Shown here piece by piece: positions 1-60,769 of a stretch of 64,000 bases of DNA (position 1 is its first letter; each line of letters begins with the position of its first letter). The stretch comes from Lunularia cruciata (Eukaryota; Streptophyta; Marchantiopsida; Lunulariales; Lunulariaceae). The notes beneath the pieces are model-generated. The model searched no databases and had not been told where the DNA came from. It worked only from the letters and a program-made list of their open reading frames with translations. The stretch is from assembly GCA_948567375.1 (NCBI GenBank), contig OX419759.1, positions 56,200,593 to 56,264,592 of the forward strand, in the 5' to 3' direction. A program made the translations under genes and the position numbers.

Positions 1-252
1 TCCTGGTCCAAACACAGCCTGCACTCTCACATTTTGAAATTGCTCTCCTGGTCCAAGCACAGCCCTGCACTCTCACATTTCAAAATTCCTCTCCTGGTCC
101 AAACACAGCCTGCACTCTCACATTTTGAAATTGCTCTCCTGGTCCAAGCACAGCCCTGCACTCTCACATTTCAAAATTCCTCTCCTGGTCCAAACACAGC
201 CTGCACTCTCACATTTCGAAATTGCTCTCCTGGTCCAAGCACAGCCCTGCAC
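1..252. repeat. 91-bp tandem array (about 2.7 copies, each two 45/46-bp half units)
   Basis: The block beginning TCCTGGTCCAAACACAG recurs at 1, 92 and 183, giving a period of 91 bp. Each unit is made of two related halves (45 and 46 bp) that differ by AAACACAGCC versus AAGCACAGCCC. The array starts at or before the window edge. It is pyrimidine-rich on the + strand. Open frames run across it only because the repeats carry few stops; there is no sign of a real protein. Confidence 0.9.
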
Positions 253-294
253 TTTCAAGCCCCTTCCTGTCCAACTCGAAAATTCCTCTCCTCT

Positions 295-841
295 GTGTGT
301 GTTCCTCTGTCCAAACCCTCCAGCTTCTCGAGAATTTCTCCTCCTGCCAAACCCCCTCCTGTCCAACTCAAAAATTTCTCTCTTGTGTGTGTTCCTCTGT
401 CCAAACCCTCCAGCTTCTCGAGCATTTCTCCTCCTGCCAAACCCCCTCCTGTCCAACTCGAAAATTTCTCTCCTCTGTGTGTGTTCCTCTGTCCAAACCC
501 TCCAGCTTCTCGAGCATTTCTCCTCCTGCCAAACCCCCTCCTGTCCAACTTGAAAATTTCTCTCCTGTGTGTGTTCCTCTGTCCAAACCCTCCAGCTTCT
601 CGAGAATTTCTCCTCCTGCCAAACCCTCTCCTGTCCAACTCGAAAATTTCTCTCCTGTGTGTGTTCCTCTGTCCAAACCCTCCAGCTTCTCGAGAATTTC
701 TCCTCCTGCCAAACCCTCTCCTGTCCAACTCGAAAATTTCTCTCCTGTGTGTGTTCCTCTGTCCAAACCCTCCAGCTTCTTGGGAATTTCTCCTCCTGCC
801 AAACCCTCTCCTGTCCAACTCAAAATTTCCTCTGTCCCTAA
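295..841. repeat. 90-bp tandem array, 6 copies
   Basis: GTTCCTCTGTCC recurs at 301, 391, 483, 573, 663 and 753, so the period is 90 bp with one 92-bp unit. Because 90 is a multiple of three, several frames on both strands stay open through the array and give long repetitive peptides. These are treated as artefacts. The array shares its pyrimidine-rich style (TCCTGTCCAAC, TCTCCTCCTGCC) with the 91-bp array before it, so the two may be a diverged series. It ends about 400 bp before a truncated gypsy integrase. Confidence 0.9.
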
Positions 842-1244
842 AAAGCCTTCCTGACTACTCCTTCATGATCATTCCAATCCCTTTCGATTCCCTTCCTTCC
901 TGCCCACCTTCTGTCCTCTGCCCCCAAACTCCTCCTGTCATTCCCCGAAAAAAAAAAACCCCTTGCTCTCTCGACACTCCTCTGTCCCTTTTCAAAAAAA
1001 AACCCTACTCCTTTCTTCTCCTGAAAATTTCTGCCACTCCTCTCGAAATCCTCTGCCAAACCCTCTTGAAATCTTTTGGCATTTTGTGAAAACCCTCAGC
1101 CCTTCTCTGTCTCCTCACTTTCTCCCAAAACCAGGTAGCAAAACCACACCCGAGACATATTATCATAAATCCCTGTTTCTTACAACAAATAAAAGAGAAA
1201 AGAAAATTTATCACACCAAAAGCCTCAAGGGTACATGTGGGCTT
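842..1244. other. No gene seen; C/T-rich spacer
   Basis: This stretch lies between the 90-bp array and the truncated gypsy pol. It is C- and T-rich with A-runs at 950-959 and 993-1001. No domain is recognisable in any frame. Confidence 0.5.
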
Positions 1245-2152
1245 TTTTCCCGACGACAACGCTTTACTCCAAAATGTCCTAGCTCCTCATGAGCATGACG
1301 GACCAACTGTGGTCTCTGTGATGGAAGTAGAACTACTCGCACTCTACCATCTTCCCATACATGCAAAAGGTTTTTGCCCTCCAATCTGAACCGTCTGGCT
1401 CGTTGAAGAACTCGGTCTCTCTCCTTGGCCCCAACTGTGCCACCCACAACACCAGTGCAAAGATAGTCCATCACTAAGACATCATCATGAATGTCTCGCT
1501 GAACTATACCAATATCTTCACTCTTTGGATTTGTGACCTCAATAACTCCTCTTGTATGCGCTGAGAGAGATACCACCAAAGCCTCTGAAAATATACAAAG
1601 AAAGGGCAATGCATGCCAACCTGGCACCATCTCCTCATCTGTCTCACCATGCCAACATGCTCTGGTCTGATCCTGCTGGCTGGGACATGGGTTTCTACTC
1701 AACCCATCTACATCACGGTTCACCACTCCAGGTCTGTGAACAACCGTGAAATCATACTCCTGTAAAATCAAAGCCCATCGTGCAAGCTTCCCTGAAAGCT
1801 TGTCAAACTCCATCAACCACTTCAGTGGCTGATGATCAGTGATGAGAGTGAAGGGGTTACCAAATAGGTAACATCAGAAATGTGCTATTGCCCAAACTGC
1901 TGCCAAGCACTCTCCCTCATATGAACTTTACTTTGCCTCCGCTGAATTGTTGGAGCAACTAGCATAGACCACCACAAACGCCTTCCCCTCATCATCATGC
2001 CGGGTGAGCACCGCTCCAAGCCCCAACATACTCCAATCAGTATGAACCAGAAATGGTCGTCCTCTAATCGGTCTCCTCAAAATAGGAGTAGATTTCAACC
2101 TCTCCTTGAGCTCTACAAAAGCTCTCCCTTGCTCATCTCCCCAACACCACTC
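1245..2152 (-). pseudogene. Gypsy RNase H and integrase N-terminus, truncated
   Basis: The minus-strand reading after the RT shows an RNase H core (HTDWSMLGLGAVLTRHD, then TDHQPLKWLM and GKLARWALILQEYDF) followed by HRPGVVNRDVDGLSRNP, the usual RNase H end. About 100 residues later comes RPQLVRHAHEELGHFGVKR, which matches the H..H half of the HHCC zinc-binding module at the start of gypsy integrases. The cysteines and the whole catalytic core are absent; the frame turns into unrelated sequence near 1,255. At least two stops lie in the RNase H part. The truncation point is close to the tandem arrays. Confidence 0.8.
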
Positions 2153-3165
2153 TTATGTAAGCTTGATCAGCTTCATCAAGGCCTTGGCAATGGCACTAAA
2201 TCCTCTAACATAGCGGCAATAGAAGTTCACCAACCCAAGGAATGCTCGCACTCTGCTCACATCCGTAGGCCAAGGAATACGTGCAATAGCCTCCACCTTG
2301 GTTTGCTGAACACCGAGTCCTCCGGGATAGATAGTGTGACCCAAATACTCAACCTGCTTGTGGAAGAACCTACACTTCCCAAGATGTAATTTAAGTCCAT
2401 GAGATCTCAACCTCTCAAACACCTCCAACAATTGTCTCTCATGCTCCTCCACAATAGTGCTATACCCTAAAATGTCATCAATATAGCACTGAGCAAAATC
2501 CAATCCAGCTAGGATCCTACCCATGACCCTCTGGAACTCAGCAAGAGTGTTCTTCAACCCAAATGGTAAGAACCTCCACTGATATAACACATCCTTACCG
2601 TGAGGATCAATAGACCAAAATGTTGTCTTGGACTTATCCTCCTCCCTGATCGGCAACTGATGATATCCCGCTCAAAGATCCAAAGTACTAAAGACCTTTG
2701 CATGCCCAATCGCATCAAAAATCTCCTCCGCTGTAGGCATGGCATACCAATCAGCCCTGGTATGTCGGTTGATAGGACGGTTATTTCCACACATCCACCT
2801 ATCTGTGTAGTTGCCATGCATATCCTTCTTGGCTAGCATCACTATTGCCGATGCATACTCTCCATGTGAAATCTCCACCAAACCAGCCCCAAAAGGTCAC
2901 TACTCCGACTCTGAATCAATGTCTTCTCTATCTCACTATATCGATAAGGACGTCAAAAAACTGGTGTATTGCTAGTCAGCTCAATCCGTATACCAAGTCC
3001 TTTCAAAGCACCCAAATCCTTCATACTGAAGGCAAAACAACTCGTGTGGCTCCTCAAGAACCTCCAAACCCTCCATCTTTCCTCTCTAGTAAGCTTGGGT
3101 CCAAGATCTGGCTCCCAAGTATCCTTGGTAACTGTAGTAGGAGTGGAAGACATATTGACTGGCTG
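2153..3165 (-). pseudogene. Gypsy reverse transcriptase of the methyltransferase-bearing element
   Basis: The linker before RT reads LTREERWRVWRFLRSHTSCF, then GIRIELTSNTPVF, typical of the region just ahead of gypsy RT. The RT fingers and palm follow: EYASAIVM, CGNNRPINRHTRADWYAMP, AEEIFDAIGHAKVFSTLDL, then GYHQLPIREEDKSKTTFW, FLPFGLKNTLAEFQRVM and the catalytic box CYIDDI at about 2,471-2,488. EYLGHTIYPGG and FLGLVNFYCRYV are the thumb/connection motifs. An Arg codon after STLDL has become TGA (2,672-2,674), a CpG-decay change. A few residues usual for the family are replaced (APAEF to TLAEF). The enzyme would have copied element RNA into DNA; this copy cannot. Confidence 0.88.
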
Positions 3166-3479
3166 CTACACTGGGCCCTTGGAAGCAATAGTGTCATGCT
3201 CCTGACCACTAGAGGTCCCAACCTCAATGTGAAAAACTCCCTCCACTTTGGCTACAAGCTCCACACATCCTCTAGCTGCATCCCATGTGGACCAAGGGTG
3301 TAATCTAAGTAGCCCACGCTCACCTGGATGGACTCCAAGTAGACCACTCTCCCTAGTAGCTACTGGATGTGTCCCAAGAATACCATGTCCACTCGGTCCA
3401 TCACCCCCAACATGTGCCTGAATCGTCTTAATAGGCACAAGGCTCACAAGTATCCGAGTGGTGATGCCTATCAAGTGCA
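3166..3479 (-). pseudogene. Linker between methyltransferase and RT
   Basis: The frame of motif X continues for about 100 residues as a low-similarity linker with HGILGTHPVATRESGLLGVHP and a second GLLRLHP, a short internal repeat, before a stop at 3,166. No catalytic motif is seen. It links the methyltransferase to the pre-RT segment and shows that the two belong to one polyprotein. Confidence 0.6.
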
Positions 3480-4445
3480 TCCTACGCTGCTCTGCCAAGC
3501 CAAGGCTCACAATCCATGTCAAATAGTTCAAGTCCATAGCATGACCTAACATCTGACGCCTAGATGCCTTTGACATTGCTGGAACAGCGGTAATACCGGT
3601 GCAAAAACCCATCGCCCGCTCTCTCTCATCGGCATTGGGCTCCACCAACTGCTGTAACTATGAGTCCGAAACAAGTCCAGGTCCTCCCTCTCAAAAAGCA
3701 TGAGAGCCTAGGAAACTCATGAGTGTGGGAAATGTGGCTCTAGGCTGTCCAACTAGGTTCACCATTGCCATAGGTGACCTATCAGTCATTACCACTGTCT
3801 GAGACTGACGCCCAACATCCAAGATATCATCAACAAGGATGTGGTCAAGTCGTTGAATCCCATCATAAGCACACTATAAAACCTCTTTGGGTAAGAGGTT
3901 TGTCCACCAAAGACAAAGATGATAAGCCCTTGATCCCACTCTGGCTGCATCTAACAATATAGCAAGTCCCATCCAAGAATGGACCTCATGTGTACTCGCC
4001 ACCACTCTGGTACGAGAATCACCCATCAAAGGAACATTCTCCAAAAGGTAAGCTAGAGAAACAGACTGATGAACCTGGAGGTGTCGTAGTATCCGTAACA
4101 TCTCCCAAAACACACCAAAACAAGGGTCCTAAAGACCCAATCCTCTACCAACACGTGTATGTCCATGACATGGCCATCCAGAATCACCAAGTGAATAGGC
4201 CCATGTTTCTCTAGATCATGCACCCCAAAGAAGGAAATGTCTCCAAGTAGGGCCTTTTGGTAACCTTTGACTGCTAACATTGGTAATAACTCTGGATACC
4301 GATAGGCCAAGTGTGCCACATGATGTCGAGAGACTCGCCTAGTAGTCTCATCTCTCTCTACATACAAGTACCTATGTACTCGGATACCCGCTTGTAACAC
4401 CACAGCTAGTCCGGTGCTGATCCCCCCAAACAACTCCAATAGGCA
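3480..4445 (-). pseudogene. C5 cytosine DNA methyltransferase domain inside gypsy pol (decayed)
   Basis: Reading down from 4,445: LLELFGGISTGLAVVLQAG (4,384-4,439) is a SAM-binding motif I; VERDETTRRV follows as expected for motif II. After a one-base frameshift near 4,181 comes GWPCHGHTRVGRGLG, the Pro-Cys motif IV with the catalytic Cys codon at 4,168-4,170. LLENVPLMGDSRTRVV carries the motif VI ENV (4,033-4,041). GSRAYHLCLWWTNL (about 3,900-3,937) fits the motif VIII Arg region. ERERAMGF (about 3,604-3,627) and RRQMLGHAMDLN (3,526-3,561) fit the C-terminal part and motif X. The enzyme family moves a methyl group from SAM to carbon 5 of cytosine. Stops at 4,129, 3,874, 3,691 and 3,658 and the frameshift kill this copy. 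The frame upstream joins directly to the protease-side reading through a single TAG, so the domain was part of the polyprotein. I am confident in the fold; substrate and activity are unknown. Confidence 0.85.
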
Positions 4446-5406
4446 TATCCCCTCTATTGGATACTACCAAGCAATGAGTATGGTATCCAAAGATGTCAAA
4501 GCAATTGCCTCTGGAGACTCATCCTCACTCATCTCTTGATGGTACGAAGGTTCCACTCCAAGCCTCCTCCACCAACTGATCTGCATGCTACTACAATGCC
4601 TCCTCTGAACTCCACAATGGAACATCCAATGTGGATGGAACAATCCCACTTGTACTCCAAAGCCAAGTGATCTCCTTTGGTACTGGAGTATCCTCTGCAA
4701 GAGCATTCCTCTCCAACAAGTCACCAAGCCAAGTAATTGCACCATTGAAAGCTAAAACTGATGCTGCCATGGTCCCGAACTGTAGTGAGCCAAGACTGCC
4801 ACTACTAAAGCATACTGGTAGGTGATATACCCATCCCTCACCAGATTGCCAACCAGGCCTATAAGAGGTTGTCTCCTCCCAATAGTCAATGTTGAAACCA
4901 ATGAGGTATAACATTGCTCCCCCAACTAGCATATCATATGACTCAGCTATTGTTGCAATAGCCTGAGCTCTCACCACTGAGCTATCAGTCGGATGACCAG
5001 GCTGAACCTGGACAACAAGCTCTCTACGTGTGATGTACTATGTCGAACCACCACCTAGAGATGTTTGGATCTGAAATGGACACCTCTCCATATCGGTCTT
5101 CCGTAACTCTAGACCGATAACTACAGCCTTCTCCAATATAAGGGGCTGTGCACCAGAGTCTAACAAGACTCTCTATGGTGTATAGACCTTCCTTGAAGGT
5201 CCCACCAAACGGAAAATCCCCCTTTGGTTATCCAATAGGACAACACCAGGTGTAAACCGCACTCTCTCAAAGGCCGGTCTAGCTGGCAACTCCTCCAGTC
5301 TAGCCGCCGCTGCTTGCCACAACCCACTAGTTGTTGAACGGATCCCATGCTCCTCAACCAAGTCAGCTCCACTACCAACCACCTCTACTCTGGTAGTAGG
5401 AACCAC
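4446..5406 (-). pseudogene. Gypsy-type aspartic protease region
   Basis: Minus-strand frames show LLDSGAQPLILEKAV (5,118-5,163), where DSG is the aspartic protease active site, preceded by LDNQRGIFRLVGPSRKVY. Downstream, ESYDMLVGGAMLYLIGFN and SYRPGWQSGEGW fit the second half of a retroviral-type protease (the Leu-Val-Gly element) and its spacer. There is a stop in the protease (TAG near 5,050) and a frame change near 4,590. The final segment, ending in SPEAIALTSLDTILIAW, runs through one TAG into the methyltransferase. The protease would have cut the polyprotein into gag, methyltransferase, RT and integrase parts. Confidence 0.75.
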
Positions 5407-5997
5407 ATCATCCCTACTCTCACAGCGTGGCAGCCAACCGGAACACTAGGGCTGGGTCAGCTCCCAATGTAAACATGTCACTGGCCAAAAACAAAGGATC
5501 CCACATAATCAGCTGAGCCGCTCCCAACATCATGCTAGACTCAGTCTATGTACTAGTAGGTGGCTGACTAGCAAGTAGTCCATCATGCACTCTATCACCA
5601 CCTACCACACCTGCACTGGGATGTCTAGGAACCATGGATGCCGTTTGCAATGCCTCAAATAGTATGAAAGACTGGGGAAATCTGACTTGTCTCCCAACCT
5701 CTCCTCTCTATGGGTCCAATGCCACTGATGCTCCTCTAGGCTCTGGAGCACGTACTCACTCCTAGTCACTGCTGCAAATGCATCCAACTGTCCTGCTTTG
5801 CACATGAAGTCCAAAGCATCTCTATCACCAACATATGAGGTGGAAGCCTCAGCACCCGAATCTGATCGCATCTCTATCACCAACATATGAGGTGGAAGCC
5901 TCAGCACCCGAATCTGATCTCCTCTGAGCAATAGCCATATTAGCCAATCTCTGCTCCAACTGCTCAATCCAAATAGCCATAGTTGTGTCAGAAGTAA
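5407..5997 (-). pseudogene. Gag-like N-terminal region of the methyltransferase-bearing element
   Basis: An ATG near 5,980 opens MAIWIEQLEQRLANMAIAQR, a short amphipathic helix of gag type. A 52-bp tandem duplication then breaks the frame. The later frame has DFMCKAGQLDAFAAVTRS and EEHQWHWTHREERLG, then stops at 5,602. No zinc knuckle is seen. Function is inferred from position only. Confidence 0.45.
5816..5919. repeat. 52-bp tandem duplication, two near-identical copies
   Basis: GCATCTCTATCACC starts at 5,816 and again at 5,868, and the 52 bases between are repeated almost exactly. Since 52 is not a multiple of three, the duplication shifts the gag-like frame, and its near identity suggests it is more recent than the general decay around it. 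Confidence 0.9.
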
Positions 5998-6007
5998 GGG
6001 CAGGTAC

Positions 6008-6697
6008 TATGAGCCAGGCTGTCTCTCACTCAGGATGAACCTCTGGTGGCTATTATGGTAGCGCACCATGGACTAAGAAGGCAAGGAACCCAAACTCCAT
6101 CATACTCCTCCAAGGCTAACACTCCAAGACTCAAGACATTGCTCACTAGAGAACTCAATGAGAGAGATAGTTGCAAATGAAAGGATGATGAGTACCTCCT
6201 CACCCCTTTTTTATATACTTGTGAAATAGTTACGTACCAAATTTACTAATTACCGTAGTAACTCAAGTTACTAGACTAAAAGTCAAGTAAAGTCAAAAAG
6301 TAGAAAGGAATATCCATTCACATGGGCATATTCCCCTAAGCATGTGGTCTTATCTTGACCCAACCACTAAGTCAAGGATTCATTCACATGTGCTATCCTT
6401 GGACTATAGAAGAATCCAAAACAAAAAGGCTTGCGGGCCCAAGAGTTCTCAACTCTTTCTCCAAAGCCAAACACCTATGAATAATACCAAGTCAACACAC
6501 TAAAATCCAAAATAGTGGTGCTCATCTTTTCTACCTCCTCTAAAGTAAGGTCCACTCTATCTTAGTTATGACTAACTTTAGCTAACCATGACTAATATAG
6601 AACCATCCTTTATCTCTATATAAATAATATCTCTTAAGTACTTGTAATACCAAGCTAAATATCACAATACCACACACATGCAGAAATGGGTGTTACA
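6008..6697 (-). mobile_element. LTR of the Athila/Tat-like gypsy family, probably solo
   Basis: On the minus strand this begins TGTAACACCCATTTCTGCAT at 6,697 and ends at 6,008 with a decayed CTCATA in place of CTCACA. It matches the three + strand LTRs at 8,176, 15,887 and 58,747 along about 690 bp, including a TATA-like ACAAGTATATAAA segment. No primer-binding site follows; the next bases lead straight into the gag-like ATG of an unrelated element. Flanking pentamers (GGTAC at 6,003-6,007, GACCT at 6,698-6,702) do not match, so no target-site duplication survives. Confidence 0.85.
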
Positions 6698-8175
6698 GAC
6701 CTCAACCTTCACAAAATCTATGAACACATTACACACAAATGGAGGAGTTGGCACCAATGGAGATTAATGTCATCCAACAGAGACCACCCAACATTGCAAA
6801 TAGAGAAATATTATGACAAAATGGTGATTTCTTTTATTGTTGCCAAATTGGACATTATGTGATATCCACTCAAGAATTGGTGACCTTGACAAATCACCCT
6901 AATGGATTTTGTGGAGTGTTATGACCAAGGAAATGAAGAATTTCAGTAGGAGAGTTTGAGCCACCTACTAGGAACTTGATTAGTTCTAATGGGATTGAAA
7001 GCTTGACCTATGCAAGTTTACTTCACTTGCTAGGTAAGATATATGATTATGATTGTAAGATTTGATTGATTTTGGAAATTTAGAATAGTGCATGTCCATG
7101 CAATTAACAAAAGAATTGGTTATTCCTATCAAGCTAATAATTGGAAGTAGATCGATGATGGTAGATGATAGAAAAAGTTCTATATTCAATGTTTCATATT
7201 TTGTTACATTCAAGATTGGGAAGGAGTATTTGAGTTTTGTAGTGGTACCTCTACTCTATGATGTCATTCTAAGTTTACCTTAGCTTGAATGTCATAAGGT
7301 TCAATTTGATTGGACTTGATGATAAATTCAAGTAACACACCAAAATAAGAATGATTGAGTAGGTTGTCTAGCACCTTTGAGTAAGACACCTAAGAATAGT
7401 TAGTCCTAAGATGGGAAGTTGTTAGTAAAGCAACCATAGACCAAGCTTTGGAGTAAGGTATTCCTATTTTTGTGGTGTAGATCAAGCTGATTGCACATGG
7501 AAAATTTAATGAGAGTGAAAAACCTCAACAAGCAATGGTTGATCAAATAGTTCAAAATTTTGTAGATGTGTTTCTAGATGTTCTATCAAAGGGATTACCC
7601 TCCAATCATGATATTCCTTTCAAAATTGAGTTATTTCTAGGAAGTACTACAATGAGTAGACCAATCTATTGACTCCCACCAAAGGAGTTGGAAGAGCTTC
7701 AAATAACATGGATGGAGTTGTTGGAGAAGGATTTCATATGATATAATGCATCTCCTTGGGGAGCACCAATACTAATTGTCCCAAAGAAGAATGGAGGACT
7801 TTGCTTCTATATTGATTACCATGGTCTCAATAAATAAAAAGTGAAGAATTCATATCCCTTGTTTCAAATTGATAACTTGCTAGATCTATTGAGTGGAGCA
7901 TGATCCTTCTCCAAGTTGGATATCTGAAGCAACTATTGGTAGATTCTCATTGATAGAGAGAATGTGCAAAAGACTACCTTTGTACAAGGTATGGACATTT
8001 TGAATGGAGATCTCTACCTTTTGGGCTCACTTATGCTCCAATAGTCTTCATGAATTTACATCCATTGAGTTATTGGATTTATACATGGTGGTATTCTTGA
8101 CTATGATGAGGTTTGAATCCATTGACACGACGACTGTTATGGTTGGATGACTTCAATGGTTGTGGTATAATGGTC
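6698..8175 (+). pseudogene. Chromovirus-like gypsy fragment: zinc knuckle, protease, RT
   Basis: The + strand shows a decayed zinc knuckle (FYCCQIGHYV, about 6,830), a protease-like segment at 7,092-7,283 ending LLYDVILSLP, and an RT beginning at about 7,650. RT motifs are PPKELEELQITWMELLEKDF, NASPWGAPILIVPKKNGG, YIDYHGLN and NSYPLFQIDNLLDLLSGA, a wording typical of the chromovirus branch of Ty3/gypsy. Many stops interrupt it. Homology ends near 8,060, before the YxDD box, and the next element's LTR begins at 8,176. It is a different family from its neighbours. Confidence 0.75.
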
Positions 8176-8863
8176 TGTAACACCCATTTGTGCATGTATG
8201 TGTGTGGTATTGTGATATTTAGTTTGGTATTATAAGTACTTGAGAAATATTATTTATTTAAAGATAAAAGATAGTTTTAATTTAGTCATAATTAGCTAAA
8301 GTTAGTCATAGTTAAGATAAAAGGGATCTTACTTTAGAACAAGTAGAAAAGATGAGCACCACTTTTTTTAATTCTAGTGTATTGACTTGGTATTATTCCT
8401 AGGTGTTTTGCTTTGAGGAAAGAGTTAAGAATACTTGGACCCACAACCCTTTTTTGGGATCTTCTAAAGTCCAAGGATAGCCCATGTCAAGGAATCCTTG
8501 AGGAGAATATTCCCATTAGTATGTACTACATGCTTAGGAGAAGATTCCCATAAGTATAGATATTCCTTTAGCTTTTTGACTTTATTTGACTTTTAGTCGA
8601 GTAACTTGAGTTATCCAATAATTATTAACTTTGGTGTGTAATTATTTCATAAATATATAAACTAGGGGTGATGAGGTACTCACCATCCTTTCATTTGTAA
8701 TTATCTCTCTTATTGAGTTCTCTAGTGAGCAATGCCTTGAGTCTTGGAGTGTTAGCCTTGGAGGAGTATGATGGAGTTGGGATTCCTTGCCTACTTAGTC
8801 CATGGTGTGCTACCATAATAGCCATCAAAGGTTCATCCTAAGTGAGAGACAAGCCGGCTCACA
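8176..8863 (+). repeat. 5' LTR, 688 bp
   Basis: It starts TGTAACACCC and ends GGCTCACA, with the TG...CA ends of an LTR. A TATA-like CATAAATATATAAACTAGG lies near 8,648, so transcription would start about 180 bp before the LTR end. After the LTR comes TTTTGGTTCTATTATCTGGACC, a decayed form of the primer-binding site seen intact in the second copy at 59,441. Confidence 0.9.
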
Positions 8864-9700
8864 CTTTTGGTTCTATTATCTGGACCTCTCTAGAAGGTAA
8901 AATAATGTTCCGTATATAATTCTATATTAGATAGAAGGAGGCTATAAGAGCTCACTTGGAGAGAACATTAAGGGAAGAGAGGACTAACTTATATAAGAGA
9001 ACTTGGATCCATTTGTATACCATATAGTTCATTATGATGTCTTTGAGGTGACTTTGTACATCTTGTACACATGAGAGGATTTGGAGAGATTGTGTGAGGT
9101 GGATTATAAATTTTGGAGATTAAGGTGATTTTGTGTAAAATCTCAAGTTTTAGATCTAGACTTCAAATTTCTACACATATTAGATTGGATTATTTTTCAC
9201 TTAACACAATCGAAATTATTGTGAGAGCTAGTACACACACTGAGCTAGAATTTTCAAAAGGTGATAGGATACATTGCCTTCACAATTGCATGCTCTTTGC
9301 AAAATTGTACACAATCTACCATTTCTTCAATTTTAAGTGTATTATTTTGAAATCTTCCAAGAAAATTAAGTGCCTAGTATTCTACCTTTTGGACCAAGAA
9401 TTAGAGAAAGATTATTCTTGCACAAAATATGATGATTTTTTAAAGTAAGAGGGGTGGTTTTTAAACCAAATCTAAAATATATGTGCTGAATAGAAAGATG
9501 TCTAAGCCAAATGGCTCAATGAAAAGATTTGAAATTTTGCAAAGGAATATATCATGGAGTTTTTATCAATTTTGAAAATTTTCAAAGAACAATGATATAC
9601 CAAGTGAGAGAATTTATTGATATTGTGAGGAGGGTCAATTCTACAAAGTTGAGGTATCATGCACGAGGAGTGCGAGAGCAATAAAAAAACATGTTTGAGT
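8864..9700 (+). other. Leader region with faint coding traces
   Basis: Between primer site and first ORF the reading AHLERTLREERTN (about 8,955) matches AHLERTL.EERAEL at the same place in the second copy (about 59,530), so a coding segment once existed here. A longer open frame at 9,113-9,448 has a counterpart at 59,679-59,915 but shows no domain. Confidence 0.4.
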
Positions 9701-10105
9701 GTTTAGACTCATCATGGGAATATAGACCTCACCAAGAGTAGAAATTGAGGCTATACCAAAACCTACACCACTAGGAGGAAAGAGTGAGTCTAAGTGCTTT
9801 TTATGTGGAGAGAAGGGACATAAAGCAAGTTCATGTCTATTGACCTTTGAGAGAAAGAGATTGAGGGAAAGGAAAGGCTTACTTGACTTGGGTTAGCATG
9901 TTGGACCTTCTTCACCAAGATTAGGAGGGAGAAGATCTAAGACCAAGGAGTCGTGTAAGGTTTGTGGAATGGAAGGATTTCCAAAAAGACATGAGTGTAG
10001 TGGAGTAAAAGCACTTTTGGAGACTTTGGTGAAGGATCTTGGAAAGAGTCTTAGTATAACTACTGAAATACTATCACCTTTATCAACTAGTTCTCAAGAT
10101 TGGTG
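9701..10105 (+). pseudogene. Extra ORF ahead of gag with two zinc-binding motifs
   Basis: The frame reads SKCFLCGEKGHKASSCLL (Cys codon 9,795), a perfect C-x2-C-x4-H-x4-C knuckle, then a basic helix TFERKRLRERKGLLDLG, one TAG, and SKTKESCKVCGMEGFPKRHE with a following Cys, a C-x2-C-x7-H-x-C motif. It ends SLSITTEILSPLSTSSQDW and stop. The second element copy has the same layout at 60,390-60,767. The first motif is of the nucleic-acid-binding nucleocapsid type. Its position before gag is unusual. The exact start is not determined because stops lie upstream. Confidence 0.6.
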
Positions 10106-10326
10106 ACGGAGATAATCTTTCAACTTATGGATAAATTATCCATGAGGGTTAGATTAATATGCACTCTATGATTTGATGTTGTTATAGAAATCTTGGAACA
10201 ACCTGAAACTTTTGTATTCCCTAGGGTGGATTACTCTCAAATGGTGTTAAATCATGTATATACTCTATTAGTTATATAGAGAGAAAAAAATATTGAGAGA
10301 AAAGAGAAAGATAGAGAGGAGCCAAG

Positions 10327-11690
10327 ATGGAGAAAGTTCCAATTTTCTTTGGCAAGGATGGAGAAGATGTGGGGGTCTTTGTGAGTGACTTCAAGAGAAC
10401 TTGCATAGGAAAAAATTAGAGGAGGAAGAACAAGTGGACCTCATTATTACCAGATTTCTTTGAGTATGCAACACTTATATGTATGAGTCAGAATACAAAA
10501 GAAAGGAAAGATATGCAAGAAGAGTCTTGGGAGAGTTTCACATCAACATTCATTGAGTAATTTTTTCCAGATAAGAGTTATGAGAGACTGATGAGTGAGA
10601 TTAACTTCCTCAAACAAGGAGATGGAGAGAAAATGAGAGTCTATATAGAAAGAGTGGAGAAGTTAGAGTCTAGATTTTGCACAATATTGAGGAAAGGTGG
10701 AGATGATGTGGAGACTACTATGATTGGCATAGGAGCCATGCTTACCAAGAATTTTGTGGAAGGATTGAGACCAAAAATAAGAAGCAAGGTGAGATATGTG
10801 AAACCTTCTTCCAAGGTTGAAGTTACCAAGATTGCAGTTCGTATGGAAGAGAGTTTGGAAGGAGATGAGAGTGATTTGGTGGTGAAGGAGGTTGTGCATC
10901 CTCCTCAAGGCTACAAGTATGGTGGACCTTCTGATAATTTAGTGGCAAGGGTTGCACCAAAAGTAGTAGTTGCTCTAGTTCTTGCACCTCTACCAAACGA
11001 TCCACTTCAAACCACCACAAAACAACTTCCAGATCTCAAGATCAATATATTGCAACTATAGGAGAAGTGAGAGGTGGATCAAAATGTGGGGAGAGTGTCT
11101 AAGAGTTATGGAAACTATCCATATAGAGGAAGCCAACCAAACAAAAATTTCAATGATAGAAATTGTTTTGGTTGTGGAGGGAGAGATCATATCCAAAAGA
11201 ATTACCCAAATTCCACTTACCATAGAGGAAGGAGTTATGAGGGAGCCAATAAAGGGCAAGAGGGAGGGATTGAAACCCAAGTGGCTCCTAATACAAACAA
11301 AGGTAAGAGTATAGCATTTATAGATGTGCTTGAGAGAAAGTATCAGAAGGGAGAGTGCTCAAACTCCAAAGGTCTTAATTTGGATATTTTAGCACAAGAG
11401 AAGAAGAGAGTTCATTTTGCAGAGGATGTACACTCTTCTCAAGGATTAACACCTAGCAAGGATACTCCTATGCCTACTATGAGCACTCATACAAGCACTT
11501 CAACACCATCAACAAAAAAGACTTCAAGGAAGAATTTGGAGATGGAGGACTTCTTTATCTCAAAGCAACAATAGAACTACAATGTATTGGAAGATGTTGG
11601 TAGTCACAAGGCTTACATCATAGTGGGCCAATTGATTTCTTTGAACCCTACCTTGAGAAAGGAGCTTAGAGGTGGTTGAGTTCTACAAGG
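10327..11690 (+). pseudogene. Gag polyprotein of the Athila/Tat-like element
   Basis: From ATG at 10,327 one frame can be followed to 11,574 through stops (near 10,420, 10,558, 11,059, 11,068 and 11,572). It starts MEKVPIFFGKDGEDVGVFV and has the gag core SYERLMSEINFLKQGDGEK, VYIERVEKLESRF, GIGAMLTKNFVEGLRPKIRS. The knuckle NCFGCGGRDHIQKNYPN (about 11,160-11,210) has lost its last Cys to Tyr. A Ser/Thr-rich tail follows. A one-base deletion near 11,670 puts the protease in another frame. Gag would form the particle and bind element RNA. Confidence 0.8.
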
Positions 11691-12074
11691 AGCAAGAGGA
11701 AGAAGAAGGAAAAAGCTCTAGTATCAATGAGGGATGCCAAACCAGCACTATGGGAGGCTTGTGAATATGCCTCCAAGATTGATGTGAAAGTGAATGGTCA
11801 TAATATCAAGGACACACGTGTTGATGGAGGATCAATAGAGAATGCCATGTTAGAAAGGTTGATGAAGAAGTTCGGTATGATACACTCTAGACCTTCAACC
11901 TTTGTGGTGAACATGGACAACAAGTTACAAGTTAGACCAATATGGGTGATGGATAAGGTGGTAGTTTTAGTTATGGGCGTTCAAAATCTCATGATTTTCC
12001 AAGTCTTGCAGGACTCAAGTTATGATTTGCTTCTTGGAATGCCACGGTTGAGAGCAACAACCACAACTGATTGA
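11676..12074 (+). pseudogene. Aspartic protease of the Athila/Tat-like element
   Basis: DAKPALWEACEYASKIDVKV is followed by the active-site region RVDGGSIENAMLERLMKKFG (about 11,817-11,880), the DGGS form used by Athila/Tat proteases, and by SYDLLLGMPRLRA near the end, the second conserved protease element. It closes at a TGA (12,072-12,074) in the context GAT TGA TGG CAC AAA GGG; the second copy has the identical stop at 62,742-62,744. The frame continues unchanged past this stop into the RT region. Confidence 0.8.
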
Positions 12075-12089
12075 TGGCACAAAGGGTAC

Positions 12090-13230
12090 TTGAGGATAAG
12101 GCCATCAAACCATAGAGTTATAGTTTCTATCACAAACACTGCCAACACTTCACATTCAGATATACTATCTTTTGATTATAAGAGATCAAGTGTGGACACA
12201 AGCATGGAAGAGGAGACTTCTACTGAGGAGGATGAATCTAAATCCAATTCAAATGTGTATCTCTTGTGTGTTATGGATTTTGCACCTAAGCCACAGGTTT
12301 TGAAGGACCCATATAAATCACCATTGACACTTAAAAAGATAGAAAGGAGATTATTTACCCTCAAGTATGATCCAAATTTTAACAAGGAGGAGAAGGTGAG
12401 ATTTGAGGAGATTTTCCACTAAACATCTATGTTTTTGCTTTTAGTTACAAGGATCTAAAGGAAGTCACCTTGGAGGAGCACAAGATTGAGGTGGAATCAC
12501 ATGCAAGACCAGTCCACCAAAAGCAACATCCACCAATATCTTTGGTTGTGAAGGAGGAGATTGATAAGCTCAAGGAGACTAGATTTATCTTTGAGATGGA
12601 GAATTAAGAATGGATGTCTCCAATTGTAATTGTGAAGAAAAAGAATGGCAAGCTTTGGGTATGTGTGGATTACAAGAAGCTCAATGTTGGTATTAAGAAG
12701 GACTATTACCCTTTGCCATTCATTGATGAGATCTTGGAGGAGGTTGCAAGTCATGAGAGGTATAGTTTTGGAGATGGTTATAATGGGTATAACCAAATCA
12801 AGATTGCATCAAAGCATCAAAAACTCACCACATTCACAACACCTTGGGGGACTTATGCTTTCAAGGTTATGCTTTTTGGGCTTTGCAATGCTCCAACCAC
12901 ATTCTAATGGTTCATGAACAAGGTGTTTGAACCTTTCATTAGGAAATTTGTGAGAGACTTTATTGATGACTTTTGTTTCTATGGGATCAAAGAGGAGCAC
13001 TTTGAGCACCTGATCAAGGTCTTGCAATGCTTGGATGAAGCAAAGGCATCACACAACCCAAAGAACTACAATTTTTGGTTGTGAAGGTCTTACTTTTGGA
13101 GCACATCATCTCCAAGGATGGAATAGAAGTTGACTCTAAGAAGGTGAGGAAAATCTCAGACCTATCATTCCCTTCAAGCCTGACAAAGTTATGTTGATTC
13201 TTGGGTACCATAAGAGGTTCACCTTCTCAT
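12090..13230 (+). pseudogene. Reverse transcriptase of the Athila/Tat-like element
   Basis: An acidic spacer (TSMEEETSTEEDESK) precedes the RT. Motifs in order: SPIVIVKKKNGKLWVCVDYK, KLNVGIKKDYYPLPFIDEIL, SFGDGYNGYNQIKIASKHQ, WGTYAFKVMLFGLCNAPTTF, then the catalytic FIDDFCFYG near 12,960-12,985. Stops occur at 12,419, 12,606 and 12,905 among others. The thumb and connection are more damaged. It shares its wording with the second copy at 62,760-64,000. Confidence 0.85.
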
Positions 13231-14450
13231 TTTCCAACAAGGCTTATGCATTGATCATCTAGGGTGTAGAATACATGGTGATTTTAGAAGATAAGAAGGC
13301 TCTCAAAGCTTTTGAGGAGCTCAAGCAATCCCTTGTTGTAGCTCAAGTTCTTGTTTAACCTGATTGGAGTAAGCCTTTCATCCTCTTCATTGATGCTTCT
13401 AATGTATCTATAGGATGCACTCTTAGTCAATTAGACAAGATTGTAATACCAATAGCTAGACATGTCATCTAGAGTTGAAAATTGGCTTGCTAACATTTGG
13501 AAGGATGTTGTGTATGATGGGCTAGGTAGATCAAATAGAGATATTGCCAAAAGAGTACTTCTACTAATAGGGCAAGAGCCAAAAATAGCTTGAATTTTGT
13601 AAAACCAAAAGCTAGACATATTATCTAGAGGTGAAAATTGGCTTTGTAACATCTAGAAGGATGTTATGCATGATGGGCTAGGTAGTTCAGATAGAGGTGT
13701 CACCAAAAGAGGACTTTTACTAATAATGTAGGAGCTAAAAATAGCTTGGACACATCAATCAATTTTGGAGGCCTAAATGGATGATTTAGGTCTCAAAAAT
13801 ATACAAATTCCCTTCCCCATGGAGGAAAGGCTGATCTTCCCTCCCCTCAGCTTTGTCTTGTTGAGAGATTTCCAAAGGTACCTCACCCACATAAGTTGGA
13901 GGTACAAGAAGTACAAGAAGATTCCTTCCGGTCAAAGATAGTTTGACCAACCAAATAGGATCAAAACCAACATATGACCCATGCATGCAACCAATCTAAG
14001 GGCAGAGCTTGCTTACAAATCAGCCATCCATTTGTCTGATCCAAGGTGGAGCTTTCTTTGTAGGAGTCCCCTTTGCTATATAATATAGTCAAGGTGCTCC
14101 TTTGGAGCATCAAAGGTTGAGTGTGAAATTATGTGTTTCTTCTTCTATGTTTCTCTTCAAGTCTCCTTTCCTCGGAAGGTTACAAAGATGAGCATGATCA
14201 TCAAATAGCTTATGCTAGTAGGTATATGGTTTCAACAGAAAAGAAATATTATGTCATAGAAAGAGAAGGATTGGTAGTTATCTTTGGTCTCAAGATGTTT
14301 AGACACTACTTGATTGGAGAGAAATCCACCATCTTCATGGATCACAAGGCTTTGAAGTACATCTTTAACAAGCTTAATGTGGAAGGGATGCTAGCAAGGT
14401 GGATGATACCCCTGTATGAGTATGATAACACCGTTGAGGATAAGTTATAA
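13231..14450 (+). pseudogene. RNase H domain, split by a solo LTR
   Basis: KALKAFEELKQSLVVAQVLV and FILFIDASNVSIGCTLSQLD lead up to 13,441; after the inserted LTR the reading resumes at 14,190 as EHDHQIAYASRYMVSTEKKY, VIEREGLVVIFGLKMFRHYL and FMDHKALKYIFNK. These are the standard RNase H segments of gypsy pol. Joining the two sides at the AAGAT duplication restores the frame exactly, which proves the insertion came later. The domain would have removed the RNA strand during reverse transcription. Confidence 0.85.
13442..14184 (+). mobile_element. Solo LTR of a third family, 743 bp, with AAGAT target-site duplication
   Basis: It begins TGTAATACC and ends GGTTACA, the short inverted TG...CA ends of an LTR. 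AAGAT stands directly before (13,437-13,441) and after (14,185-14,189). A TATA-like CTATATAATATAG lies near 14,075-14,087. A second copy of the same family sits at 45,778-46,808 in the opposite orientation. No internal region is present, so this is a solo LTR left by LTR-LTR recombination. Confidence 0.92.
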
Positions 14451-15886
14451 AAGAAACATGCAAATGATGATTTGTTATCTAGGGCTTATGATCATGATGG
14501 AGATGAGACAATGGATGATTCCTTCCCGGATGAGGAGCTCATGACAATCTCAATCACTCAAGAGATTCCAATGGAGTACAAGGAGATTGTGGACTTTGTT
14601 ACAAGAGGTAACTATCCAGAAGGGATGCATGCTAGGCAGAGTTTAGGGCCTTGCAGCAAGATCTAGACCTTACACAATGGTGGAGGATATTCTTTTTCAC
14701 CAAGGAGCAGATGGTCTACTTTGAAGAGAAGTAGGAAGAGTTTATCTTACTTATAAAGGAGTTTCATGGAGGTTTAATGTGTGGAAGACACTTTGTAGGA
14801 AAGGTGACTGCTTTCAAGATTCTAGATGCAGGTTACCATTGGAGAGGGATTTTCAAGGATTTTCTTGATTATTGCAAAACTTGTCATGTTTGTCAAGCTT
14901 TTGCTAGAAAGCTATTTCCACTCCACCACTTAGATCAATTCCATTGCTAGGACTCTTTAAGAAGTGGGGAATTGATTTTGTAGGTCCTTTCAATAGAATC
15001 CCAAGGAACAATTGGTATATTGTGGTGATTACTAATTATTTTACCAAGTGGGTTGAGACTAAGCCATTGAGGGACAAGAATGAAGATGAAGTTGGGAGAT
15101 TTCTTTATGGATGCATTATCATTATGTTTGGGTTGGTTTGGTTCAGAAATCAACCTTTGGAGTTGGTTTTTGATAGAGGAGGAGAGTTACATGAATCATT
15201 ACTACTACCAAGCTTTGACATTTCTCTATCACACATAAAGTAACTACATCCTCTAAGCTAAATTCCAATGGCTTGTTAGAGAGAACCAATCAGATCTTGT
15301 GCATGATGGTGGCCAAAGATATAGAATGGAGGGGGCTAAACATCATTGGGACAAGAGGATTCATGCAATTTTGTGGGAGTATAGGACAACCATGAAGACT
15401 TCCACCAGATATTCTCCATTTCAATTGGTATATGGCATTGAGTATACCTTACCTATTCACTTTGATCTTCCTACCTTCCAAAGCATTCATAGGAGATTGA
15501 AGAAAGCACAAGAAGGTGATGTAGAGAAGTCAAGGAAGGATCAACTCATGGAATTGGAAGAGGCAAGAGTAGTTGCTATGGTTCAAGTGGAGCAAGCCAA
15601 AAGGAAACAAAAGGATAGCTATGACAAGAGGTAAGGCAAGAAGAAGGTGGAGCCTTTCAAAGAAGGTGATTGGATAATGTTGTTTGATTCTATTTGATTC
15701 AAGAGAGTGCAAAAAATTTTTTTTGCTTAAATATTTTGGACCTTTCATAGTGGAGAAGGTGTGGGGAAATTACACCTTTGATCTCAAGGATTTGATAAGA
15801 TTAACCATGATAAGTTGAAGATGTATCATAGAAGGTAGAGAGACCTTCACTTTGAGGACAAAGTGAAAACTAAATCCGGGAGTAAA
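14451..15886 (+). pseudogene. Integrase of the Athila/Tat-like element and pol C-terminus
   Basis: The HHCC zinc module is readable near 14,758-14,905 (KEFHGGLMCGRHF ... DYCKTCHVCQ). The catalytic core follows with KKWGIDFVGPFNRIPRNNWY (first Asp) and VVITNYFTKWVETKPLRDKN, then LVFDRGGELHESL (second Asp region). TTMKTSTRYSPFQLVYGIEY and LPIHFDLPT are the usual end of the core. A basic C-terminal part runs to about 15,640 and then to the LTR. Several stops and frame changes are present. The integrase inserts the DNA copy into the host genome. Confidence 0.82.
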
Positions 15887-16575
15887 TCTAACACCCATTT
15901 GTGCATATGTGTGGTATTATGATAATTAGTTTGGTATTACAAGTACCTAAGAGATATTATTTATAGAGATAAAGGATGGTTCTACCTTAGTTATGATTAG
16001 TTAAAGTTAGTTATAGCTAAGATAGAGTGGATCTTACTTTAGAGGAAGTACAAAAGATGAGCACCATTATTTTGGATTCTAGTGTATTGACTTGGTATTA
16101 TTTCTAGGTGTTTGGCTTTGAGGAAAGAGTTAAGAAATCTTGGATCCACAAGCCTTTTTGTTTTGGATTCTTCCATAGTCCAAGGATAGTCCATGTGAAG
16201 GAATCCTTGACTTAGTGGTTGGGTCAAGATAGGACCACATGCTTAGGAGAATATTCCCATTAGTATGGATATTCCTTTACCTTTTTGATTTTATTTTACT
16301 TTTAACCTAGTAACTTGAGTTACTCTAATAATTAGTAACTTTGGTGCATAACTATTTCACAAGTATATGAATTAGGAGTGAAGAGGTACTTACTATCATC
16401 TCATTTGCAACTATCTCTCTCTCATTGAGTTCTCCAATGAGCAACATCTTGAGTCTTGGAGTGTTAGCCTTGGAGGAGTATGATATAGTTGTGATTCCTT
16501 GCCTTCTTAGTCCATGGTGAACGACCATAACAACCATTAGAGTTTTACCTTGAGTGAGAAACAAGCTAGCTCACA
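15887..16575 (+). repeat. 3' LTR, 689 bp
   Basis: It matches the 5' LTR along its length; the first bases are TCTAACACCC (G to C at position two) and the last are AGCTCACA. It holds the segment TTGGTTGGGTCAAGATAGGA that the 5' LTR lacks but the LTRs at 6,008 and 58,747 keep. The two LTRs of the element therefore differ by an indel as well as by point changes, which speaks for great age or for recombination between elements. Confidence 0.88.
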
Positions 16576-16644
16576 TATCACACTCCAAGGGTGTAACTTA
16601 TTTTACAACTATACACATGTATTTATACAAAAAATCTCTACTTC

Positions 16645-44748: not shown

Positions 44749-45777
44749 GTGCTCTCTCCCTCTAGGCCATCACTTTTATCCTGTGACACTTTATCAGACT
44801 TACAAATCCTACATCCACTTGCCAATAAGGAACTTCCTTTGTTCCTCCATGAATATCAGCTAGATGAGGAGTTACAATTGACAAAGTCTTGCTTTACCTA
44901 TGCTCTACTCCACTCTTCATGCTTATTAGTGGGAGGAGAGAGCCATAGGTTAGTTTTTGAGCACCTATGGATTACCTCTCTTCCCATACACCTAGATTCA
45001 TGTTTTCCTCTTCTCCTTGCTTTCTATCAATGCATTGCCTCCGGTCATGTGCCCCTTGGAGTGGCACATTTATTTGGAGCTTCTTTTCTCCTTGCTCTCA
45101 TAAAGGAGAACTCAAGTGTGCACCCTATTGCCATTGAGGACGTGTTTTTGTGTTTGGTTTCCCATGCTATTTGCTTATCAATGCAAACTTCTTTTTCTTC
45201 CTCTTTATCTCTCCTTAGTTTGTTGTGGCTACTTCATGGGGATGCAAGACAGTTTATGCAGATATATGAGCATCCTTGGACATTCATCTAGATTGGATGG
45301 TGGTCCAAGTTGATGTCTCCAATGCCTTCAATACCATCTCTTGTCCAACATTGTTTAGTGCACTTTGCTCAACTACCAATCAAATCCCTTCCTTGATCTT
45401 GTTTTTATAGGCTTTCTATAGGATTGAGATACCACTATTGTATAGCCACCATACCACCACAATAGAGTTCTCATAGTTGACATTAGTCAAGGGCACACAA
45501 CAAAGGGATCCCATAGGGGGCCTCTCTTTTGCCATATGGCATTATATGGCTTTATGATAGGTTGCAATAGCTTTTCCATCTTGTCTTTTCCCATCCATCT
45601 TGAATGATACTTATATATTGGGCCCTTTGGAGGATGTCACTAAAGCAATGTCTTCTTTCATACTCAACTTAGAGGCCTTGGATTTACAAGTCCAGATTCA
45701 TAAATGCAAGATTTGGAGTCCTTACATGGTCCTCATTCCCTTTGACTTCCCACCAAGATTCCAATTCTGTAATACTC
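44749..45777 (+). pseudogene. LINE-like reverse transcriptase domain
   Basis: GGESHRLVFEHLWITSLPIH, FYQCIASGHVPLGVAHLFGA and VHPIAIEDVFLCLVSHAICL are the early RT motifs; RPIAIGE-like PIAIED is typical. After a stop at 45,289 and a frame change, VVQVDVSNAFNTISC gives motif A with its Asp. KGTQQRDPIGGLSFA is motif B (usual QGDP now QRDP), and LNDTYILGP stands where a DD-type motif C is expected: the first Asp is Asn. IHKCKIWSP closes the palm. The domain would prime reverse transcription at the target site, but stops and the D-to-N change make it inactive. Confidence 0.78.
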
Positions 45778-57389: not shown

Positions 57390-58746
57390 CAGTACAAGGG
57401 AGAGACAAAAAAGATAAAATGAGGCTTAGCCCCAGTAGAGTCTATATGAGAAATCTGCCCAACCGCACTAAGATATCCAAGCCACGCAAGTCATACAATC
57501 TACACACAAATGGAGCATCCAAAGAAACCTCACCTAATGTGATTGCTCTCCTGTGGATTGCACCAGCCATTGACCTTTGTAGAGTAATGGACACACTTTG
57601 CCTAAAATATGCTACAAAGTATGAGAGTAAGAGTGGTTGCCCCTGGCGTCTAACATGATAAGCTCTTATGCACTCCTTGGAAAATGTGTCAAATGCCATG
57701 TCCATCGCTCCATATAGTCCAAGGCTAGAGGAACAAAGAGGTGACCTTGCTGCATACCCCTTTACTTAGAGACATTGCAACCTATTGTTGCACTCGTTGC
57801 CTATCCAAGGGAATGGGTAATCACTCCCTCCAAAATTGTATTCCGCATAAGATCCATAACCACGACATCCGCTACTATCACCTGATCATCTTGGACCAAG
57901 TACAAGTCTGCACTGACACGTGTTGTTTGCAAAGCATATGAACGCTCCCTCCAAGCCAAGTATCCACTCTCTCGTGCCATAACAAACACTATGTCCCTAA
58001 TAGCATCATGGGTAGCTATCCTCTATCCTCCAAAAGGACATCATGTCAATGGACTACTACTACATCTAGTGTAGAACCACACTCACAAGTGAGTAATGAA
58101 GATGTAGATGGGTGGACCAAACCTAGGTGAAAACTCATTGCTGTAAAGAAAGTAGCTGGTGCGAGTCAAAATGCCCTAATGCACGGTTGAGCTAGGATCC
58201 AAGAGCTTGCATCCTTGCCGGAGCAAGAGCAAATACATGCTCTAGTAGCCTGAGGAATGGATGAGTTGACTAAGAGAGAATGTAACATATGCTCAGATTG
58301 TCGCTCCATCAAGGAAGATTGTAAGCCTCTAGTCCAATCTGAAGATAGTGAAGCAAAAGGTGGAAAATCCTCTCATGCAGGTGGAGATAGACTATCTCTC
58401 ATCTGCTGTAATTACATCTGGAGAGAAAAAGATCCTCCTTCCACCTCTATCACATAAGTCTCCAAAACCGGCCTATCAACAACCACAACATGAGAGGAAA
58501 GTAGGGGTGCAGAGAGAGCCTAACTACCCAAAAATGCTATAGGTGCCGTCTCCTCCATAGATAGCAAGCCAACGCTCCACATGAGATTGGCAGAGCCATT
58601 TGTCTACGTGCCAAATCCCCTATCAAACACTCAAACGTCCTTGGTCCAATAATATTACCAAAGACTCCCATAATCCTCCTATCAAAAGATCTCAAACGTG
58701 ATAAGAAGGACGGCGAGTGTGGAACTGTACGGATGAGGGGATGGTT
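57390..58746 (-). pseudogene. LINE-like pol C-terminal fragment (- copy)
   Basis: On the minus strand the order from 58,746 is LRSFDRRIMGVFGNIIGPRT, CLIGDLARRQMALPISCGAL, then through stops the same C-terminal segments as the + copy: FVMARESGYLAWRERSYALQ, VSADLYLVQDDQVIVADVVV and YFVAYFRQSVSITLQRSMAG, GAIHRRAITLGEVSLDAPFV, ending near 57,400. It extends further upstream than the + copy. Its N-terminal side is cut by the LTR starting at 58,747. Confidence 0.75.
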
Positions 58747-59437: not shown

Positions 59438-59440
59438 TTT

Positions 59441-60767: not shown

Positions 60768-60769
60768 TG

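What the first reader, a model, noticed from the sequence alone, without database searches (positions are those of the whole stretch)
3166..4445. Cytosine DNA methyltransferase embedded in a gypsy polyprotein of a seed-plant-like genome
Between protease and RT of the minus-strand gypsy element a C5 methyltransferase can be read with motif I (ELFGGISTG), Pro-Cys motif (GWPCHGH, Cys codon 4,168-4,170), ENV motif (4,033-4,041), an Arg motif and motif X in correct order. One TAG separates it from the protease side and it shares a polyprotein logic with RT, so it was carried by the element rather than lying there by chance. Retrotransposons that acquired such enzymes were reported from charophyte algae and dinoflagellates (recalled). 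An element that could methylate its own DNA, or interfere with host silencing, would be an unusual counter-defence or self-restraint system. That role is inference; this copy is inactive.
Basis: partly seen in the sequence, partly recalled or inferred. Interest (0 to 1): 0.9.

Follow-up and report, generated by a model that had tools for sequence, protein, structure and literature searches.

The report
Jumping gene with built-in DNA methylase
This is a worn-out copy of a plant jumping gene, found more than a thousand times in this genome, that carries its own DNA-methylating enzyme, which it likely makes and packs alongside its coat protein and would use to mark its own DNA.

Summary
The minus strand carries a DNMT3-type cytosine methyltransferase domain between protease and reverse transcriptase of a Gypsy element. 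This copy is broken by a frame change, in-frame stops and C-to-T decay, and the element is cut off inside gag and integrase.

It belongs to a large family. In the window's genome (565.8 Mb, unnamed) the DNMT-RT junction pattern matches 1,835 times (reversed-pattern control 7). All 20 copies fetched carry DNMT, RT, RNase H, integrase and a PHD finger. Liverworts, Sphagnum and green algae have relatives; "seed plant" is not supported.

New anatomy: the TAG at 3168-3166 is not decay. It ends Gag-PR-DNMT and is followed by CAGCCA, fitting the tobamovirus-type leaky-stop consensus UAG-CARYYA. A distant relative with open frames has TAG-CAATCA there and RT-RH-IN-PHD in the same frame. So DNMT is likely made at Gag level and Pol by readthrough. 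Ends are TG..CA with split repeats (A..B-A-B) and 4-bp target duplications.

Closest known: KnitGypsy-Dnmt3 of Klebsormidium nitens. I propose particle-borne self-methylation; readthrough, packaging and enzyme activity are untested. New variant of a known kind.

The parts
5411..6009 (-). C-terminal part of gag; the element is cut off upstream at 6010 by an LTR of another family
   Evidence: tblastn of Marchantia P0205 residues 392-556; junction with foreign LTR 6010-6701
4540..5337 (-). Protease region (LDSGAQPLIL) and linker to DNMT
   Evidence: tblastn of P0205 579-846; no Pfam hit in the window pieces; aspartyl-protease models hit relatives P0146 and P0186 and, below cut-off, L009 ORF1
3470..4463 (-). 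DNMT3-type C5 cytosine methyltransferase domain, motifs I to X, broken by a frame change near 4185 and stops at 4131, 3876, 3693, 3660
3169..3469 (-). C-terminal tail of ORF1 after DNMT, ending ..HDTIASKGPV
3160..3168 (-). TAG stop (3168-3166) plus CAGCCA (3165-3160): likely leaky stop of the UAG-CARYYA type
1364..3117 (-). Reverse transcriptase and RNase H, same phase as DNMT at the junction, broken further on
   Evidence: RVT_1 76.6 bits and RT_RNaseH 41.4 bits; colinear with P0209
1256..1363 (-). Start of integrase zinc-binding region; the element is cut off here, so no PHD finger remains in this copy
   Evidence: Integrase_H2C2 18.2 bits, below the 25.5 cut-off; alignment to copies ends at 1259

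Best explanation
The region is a decayed copy of a high-copy Gypsy-type retrotransposon whose first reading frame runs Gag-protease-DNMT3-type methyltransferase, ends at a UAG that is likely read through at a low rate to give RT-RNase H-integrase-PHD, and whose methyltransferase is predicted to travel in the virus-like particle and to methylate the element's own new DNA. Shown: domain order, the recurrent TAG with its CARYYA hexamer, open frames in other copies, split direct repeats, TG..CA ends, 4-bp target duplications and CG-directed decay of this copy. Inferred: readthrough, hence DNMT at Gag level rather than at the lower Pol level. Inferred: packaging with Gag. Inferred: methylation of cDNA or of the fresh insert, which would hand it to host CG maintenance already marked like surrounding DNA and so spare the host while the family persists. 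Inferred: the PHD finger, similar in sequence to known PHD readers, helps place integration complexes on chromatin.
For: DNMT3-type by profile, fold and catalytic residues: 85 bits to DNMT3 against 41-51 for DRM; model of relative P0001 pLDDT 90.2, the 50 Foldseek matches listed are all DNMT3; catalytic Cys in 171 of 178 aligned stretches. Order kept in 20 of 20 copies. TAG in 20 of 20 and CARYYA in 18 of 20; genome-wide 1,835 junctions with TAG (control 7), 1,537 with CARYYA (control 0). The distant relative L009 has TAG CAATCA with RT-RH-IN-PHD in phase. 38 of 125 DNMT-ending relatives share clade-specific tails. pN/pS of DNMT 0.40, in the range of the other domains (0.24-0.59). Target duplications in 8 of 11 copies, 0 of 110 mismatched pairings. 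Published: SymbioDIRS-Dnmt3 domains methylate CG in yeast.
Against: No expression, readthrough, packaging or methylation data here. In the published yeast test the KnitGypsy DNMT gave no methylation, which the authors call inconclusive. CARYYA is closed under transitions at three of its six positions, copies in one genome are not independent, and only two lineages were read as DNA. Some clades join DNMT to RT without a stop, so the leaky stop is not general. All protein searches were DNMT-driven. The sense-codon count at the junction did not complete. CG decay of this copy could be host methylation alone. The pN/pS sample was chosen mostly for long frames and has no formal null.
Confidence: 0.5

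Rival explanations
1. The methyltransferase would act on the host instead: it disturbs host methylation or silencing (counter-defence), and methylation of the element is only what the host does to it.
For: The copy's CG decay (40-45% of CGs of seven copies are TG or CA in the window) needs only host methylation; the genome keeps DNMT3-like and DRM genes.
Against: The domain lies in the frame of Gag and protease in copies and in L009, which fits a particle role better than a free nuclear one (inference).
Confidence: 0.2
2. The TAG would be an ordinary stop: Gag-PR-DNMT is the only product of frame 1 and Pol is made from another start or a spliced RNA.
For: Marchantia gene models join DNMT to RT while skipping the stretch that holds the stop (P0209 694-696 against window 3511 to 3117); no protein data.
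Against: DNMT and RT are in phase across the stop in 20 of 20 copies by tblastn coordinates (my arithmetic) and in L009. The hexamer fits CARYYA in two lineages whose flanking residues differ; chance per site is 8 in 4,096 by my arithmetic. Of 24 stops on the window's coding path only this one is followed by CARYYA (over all three frames the element has two, L009 one).
Confidence: 0.2
3. The domain would be kept for another job, such as binding or methylating RNA or acting as a nucleic-acid chaperone, without methylating DNA.
For: The KnitGypsy domain showed no activity in yeast, called inconclusive; PMC5890265 raises RNA methylation for the LINE case.
Against: Closest to DNMT3, far above DNMT2-type enzymes (85 against 29 bits); catalytic residues kept.
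Confidence: 0.1

Closest known systems
KnitGypsy-Dnmt3 of Klebsormidium nitens (de Mendoza et al. 2018, PMC5890265; abstract, sections 9, 10, 11 and search passages read; figures not held)
   Same: Gypsy-type pol with a DNMT3-type domain in the polyprotein, conserved key residues, Ka/Ks below 1, repeats laid out like those of DIRS elements.
   Different: Here a land-plant clade in large copy number, DNMT at the end of a Gag-PR frame before a UAG-CARYYA, a PHD finger after integrase, TG..CA ends with 4-bp duplications. The word PHD does not occur in that paper's main text; the figure that draws the domains was not seen, and no K. nitens sequence was compared.
SymbioDIRS-Dnmt3 of Symbiodinium (same paper)
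   Same: Retroelement-borne DNMT3-type domain; shown there to methylate CG in yeast.
   Different: DIRS element, independent acquisition according to the authors; the present element has a DDE-type integrase and target duplications.
Type I stop-codon readthrough of tobamoviruses (PMC5382211 and PMC3542737, passages read)
   Same: UAG followed by CAR-YYA, extension in the same frame, polymerase downstream.
   Different: Found in a plant retroelement, leaving a DNA-modifying enzyme on the Gag side; not measured.
Chromoviruses (recalled)
   Same: Gypsy pol with a histone-reader type domain after integrase.
   Different: PHD finger in place of a chromodomain, plus DNMT; the two other RTs in this window are far from the DNMT element's RT.

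Membership tests
C5 cytosine methyltransferase, DNMT3 type | Motifs I, IV (Pro-Cys), VI (ENV), VIII and X in order | tested here: met
   All present in the window in two frames; both motif VIII arginines are lost in this copy
C5 cytosine methyltransferase, DNMT3 type | Nearest to DNMT3 by profile and fold | tested here: met
   in the tree element DNMTs form their own clade (100/100) beside host DNMT3-like, DRM and human DNMT3A
C5 cytosine methyltransferase, DNMT3 type | Catalytic activity on DNA | not testable with these tools
   No assay; published result for the KnitGypsy domain inconclusive
DNMT-carrying Gypsy retroelement (KnitGypsy-Dnmt3 kind) | Gypsy RT, RNase H and integrase with DNMT in the element's coding region | tested here: met
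DNMT-carrying Gypsy retroelement (KnitGypsy-Dnmt3 kind) | DIRS-like repeat layout | tested here: met
   A..B-A-B in 9 of 12 copies with a 5' piece, one of them with an extra A; the window copy has no ends left
DNMT-carrying Gypsy retroelement (KnitGypsy-Dnmt3 kind) | Common descent with the K. nitens element | not tested
   No K. nitens sequence was found by name
Type I (UAG-CARYYA) readthrough | UAG, CARYYA, in-frame extension | tested here: met
Type I (UAG-CARYYA) readthrough | Measured readthrough | not testable with these tools
   No reporter or peptide data
Chromovirus | Chromodomain after integrase | tested here: not met
   Pfam on L009 ORF2 shows PHD and no chromodomain; PHD probe matches 20 of 20 genome copies; the window copy is cut off before this point

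The most novel reading that the evidence does not exclude
A green-lineage retrotransposon family owns a complete epigenetic module: a DNMT3-type 'writer' made at coat-protein level by a tobamovirus-type leaky stop, and a PHD 'reader' on the integrase end. New DNA copies are methylated inside the particle and placed by chromatin state, so a parasite rather than its host sets the first methylation of its inserts, a design inherited with the element since before mosses, liverworts and charophyte algae parted.
Probability: 0.3. Interest if true: 0.9.

Novelty: new variant of a known kind. Interest (0 to 1): 0.74.

Why it matters
Silencing of transposons by cytosine methylation is usually told from the host's side. 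Here a large plant retroelement family, with open-frame copies and near-identical repeats, has kept its own cytosine methyltransferase and placed it in the Gag frame. That makes an open question testable: do transposons methylate themselves, and does it help them? The likely Gag-level dose and the nearby PHD finger give precise, cheap tests, and Marchantia, a laboratory plant, holds related elements.

Tried and rejected
Chance reading: rejected. Host gene beside a dead element: rejected. Seed-plant host: not supported; Lunularia cruciata (580 Mb assembly, Ty3/Gypsy bursts, 2,827 full-length LTR elements; PMC9985172, passages) would fit the 565.8 Mb genome but is only a lead. The block 6010-6701 as this element's own LTR: rejected, it belongs to the plus-strand family with LTRs at 8172-8861, 15889-16576 and 58743-59435. 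Tyrosine-recombinase insertion, suggested by the DIRS-like repeats: not favoured, since 4-bp duplications and an integrase are present. IMG/VR scans gave 8 loci with short weak matches to the methyltransferase motifs, not examined beyond use of one as outgroup, and no RT relative. Plasmid records gave 3 bacterial methyltransferase matches, phage records none for ORF2. The prokaryote contig scan gave L009 and 3 Streptomyces loci. Copies without DNMT: none among 20 fetched or 28 paired spacings, but a DNMT-less sister family is not excluded. Sense-codon share at the junction: not completed. DNMT-motif count in the genome: not completed. Paper searches listed no account of bryophyte or vascular-plant cases that I could recognise from titles and abstracts, beyond de Mendoza 2018 and a sentence on 'streptophytes' in a 2025 survey (PMC12344493, passages); passages of PMC6338049, PMC9033089, PMC12477816 and PMC10508981 showed none. 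The library lacks most subscription journals.

Full report
What is there. On the minus strand from 6009 to about 1256 lies a truncated, decayed Gypsy element: gag C-terminus, protease, a cytosine methyltransferase, RT, RNase H and the first part of integrase. Single pieces score no DNA_methylase; a read with X at the breaks scores PF00145 at 16.2 bits, under the cut-off of 22, yet finds DNMT3A at E 3.8e-8 and 120 proteins down to E 8.4e-139. Of 10 long relatives scanned 7 pass the cut-off, 2 (P0182, P0162) are just under it and 1 (P0199) shows no hit; of 7 more, 4 pass and 3 show none.

Which enzyme. A profile of 14 relatives hits DNMT3 structures with up to 85 bits, plant DRM with 41-51, bacterial enzymes with up to 34, DNMT2 with 29 and DNMT1 with about 10. 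A model of the relative P0001, built on 36 sequences, has mean pLDDT 90.2; the 50 Foldseek matches listed are all DNMT3. The catalytic Cys is kept in 171 of 178 aligned stretches that cover it, the ENV Glu in 178 of 188; 12 of 178 have Glu in place of the motif IV Pro. In the window copy both motif VIII arginines are lost.

Context in relatives. Named relatives come from Marchantia, Riccia, Calypogeia, Sphagnum, Closterium and Monoraphidium. Of 257 proteins from three DNMT-driven searches, 117 show a second retroelement domain by my own profiles and 140 show DNMT alone, many of them short. Of the 24 that hold both DNMT and RT, 20 have DNMT first and 4 have RT and RNase H first. Ten proteins end in a PHD finger region after integrase. 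In the DNMT tree the window lies in a 24-row clade with land-plant rows and unnamed ones (100/100), in the RT tree with 5 Marchantia and Sphagnum rows (100/99); both trees also set the RT-first layout apart (100/97 and 96/94). The window's two other RTs are far away.

The genome. The window's genome, 565.8 Mb in 74 contigs and unnamed, answered 5 searches. PF00145 gave 2,161 first-look candidates, of which 123 were scored; the rows listed are over the cut-off. Three places are not the element: L013 reads as a DNMT3-like gene in pieces, L014 and L053 as permuted DRM genes; a 2025 survey calls DRM restricted to streptophytes. A DNMT3A query scored 149 matches; besides these three the rows look like the element by their uniform alignments, but I did not check them one by one; 10 of the 149 lie in open frames of 1,428-1,431 aa. 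From the 123 I fetched 20, chosen mostly for long frames: DNMT, RT, RH, integrase and PHD in 20 of 20, protease in 20 (one partial), gag in 18. The window copy is 90.4-92.9% identical to them. The protease motif with up to two mismatches occurs 2,731 times, control 0. Of 47 such sites listed on part of contig 1, 28 have a junction downstream within 12 kb, 27 of them at 1,959-2,070 bp and 1 at 1,679; 19 were unpaired.

The stop between DNMT and RT. In relatives the DNMT often ends a frame: 38 of 125 proteins that reach the DNMT end and show no later domain finish in one of six clade-specific tails. The window's TAG at 3168-3166 stands at that place, followed by CAGCCA and then the RT side in phase. 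L009, a 9.2-kb contig filed under a cyanobacterial MAG and by content a eukaryotic element, has an open Gag-PR-DNMT frame, TAG CAATCA, then an open RT-RH-IN-PHD frame in the same phase. Both hexamers fit CARYYA, the type I readthrough consensus, though residues around it differ. On the plus strand of L009 it is the only stop followed by CARYYA; in the window element there are two over three frames, and of the 24 stops on its coding path only the junction. TAG stands in 20 of 20 copies and CARYYA in 18. Genome-wide the junction pattern with TAG has 1,835 matches (control 7), 1,537 of them with CARYYA (control 0). P0166 has a Tyr at the stop and then Gln-Ser. Several relatives, such as P0158 and P0232, have no stop there. 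CARYYA tolerates transitions at three positions, so its survival in decaying copies is partly automatic.

Ends and age. Twelve copies have a 5' piece. Eight show one A repeat (about 448 bp) at the 5' end and B-A-B (106, 448, 106 bp) at the 3' end; L027 shows the same with an extra A, L025 a doubled B-A-B, L037 a partial A, and L036 no A. Elements start TG and end CA. Four-base duplications flank 8 of 11 copies with both ends read; 0 of 110 mismatched pairings agree. The A pair is 94.9-99.8% identical in nine copies and 88.2% in one. This is the repeat layout reported for KnitGypsy-Dnmt3, here with integrase-type insertion marks.

Selection and decay. pN/pS over copies is gag 0.25, PR 0.45, DNMT 0.40, RT 0.24, RH 0.41, IN 0.59, PHD 0.48; without CpG codons DNMT is 0.32 (7 to 20 copies per domain, those of equal length). 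So DNMT is held about as tightly as the other parts, with no formal null. Against seven copies, 40-45% of their CGs are TG or CA in the window copy, versus 8.6-9.7% C-to-T outside CG and 10-23% in the reverse direction. Of 26 arginine columns conserved in relatives 7 are lost in the window, all fitting CG transitions. This copy was CG-methylated for long, by host or by the element.

How it likely works. Gag-PR-DNMT would be the main product and the Pol extension the rare one, so DNMT would be as common as Gag. I infer packaging and methylation of element DNA, following the proposal in PMC5890265, where SymbioDIRS-Dnmt3 domains methylated CG in yeast but the KnitGypsy domain did not, a result its authors call inconclusive. 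The PHD finger of L009 resembles those of CHD4, PHF12, UHRF1 and KDM5, several of which read the H3 tail (recalled).

Origin. Element DNMTs form one clade (100/100) beside host DNMT3-like, DRM and human DNMT3A, which argues against recent capture from this host; long branches limit this.

Novelty. DNMT-bearing Gypsy elements are known from K. nitens, and a 2025 survey mentions streptophytes. In the searches listed I saw no account of the land-plant family, the leaky stop or the copy number; whether the K. nitens element has a PHD finger I could not see. I rate it a new variant of a known kind.

Noticed in passing
window 8172-16576 and 58743-63961 (+): Two copies of another Gypsy family without DNMT; LTRs 8172-8861 and 15889-16576 are about 83% identical; CpG observed/expected is 0.07 and 0.14, far below the DNMT element's 0.33.
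   Followed up: partly
window 6010-6701 (-): Solo-looking LTR of that other family, 94% identical to 58743-59435, abutting the DNMT element's gag.
   Followed up: partly
window 1-1000: Tandem-repeat stretch next to the cut-off integrase end.
   Followed up: no
L009 (CADCWO010000201.1) and protein P0136: Retroelement sequences filed under cyanobacterial and Obscuribacterales MAGs, evidently eukaryotic contamination; the ends of L009 overlap, as in a circular contig.
   Followed up: partly
P0237, P0242, P0248, P0255 and kin: A second layout with RT-RNase H before DNMT, then integrase and PHD, apart in both trees.
   Followed up: partly
G000:C7:31988337-31991654 (L013), C1:48268596-48271946 (L014), C6:13139900-13140900 (L053): Host DNMT3-like gene in pieces and two permuted DRM-like genes.
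   Followed up: partly
window 44749-45291 (+): A 180-aa open frame that by eye looks like part of another retroelement; not searched.
   Followed up: no
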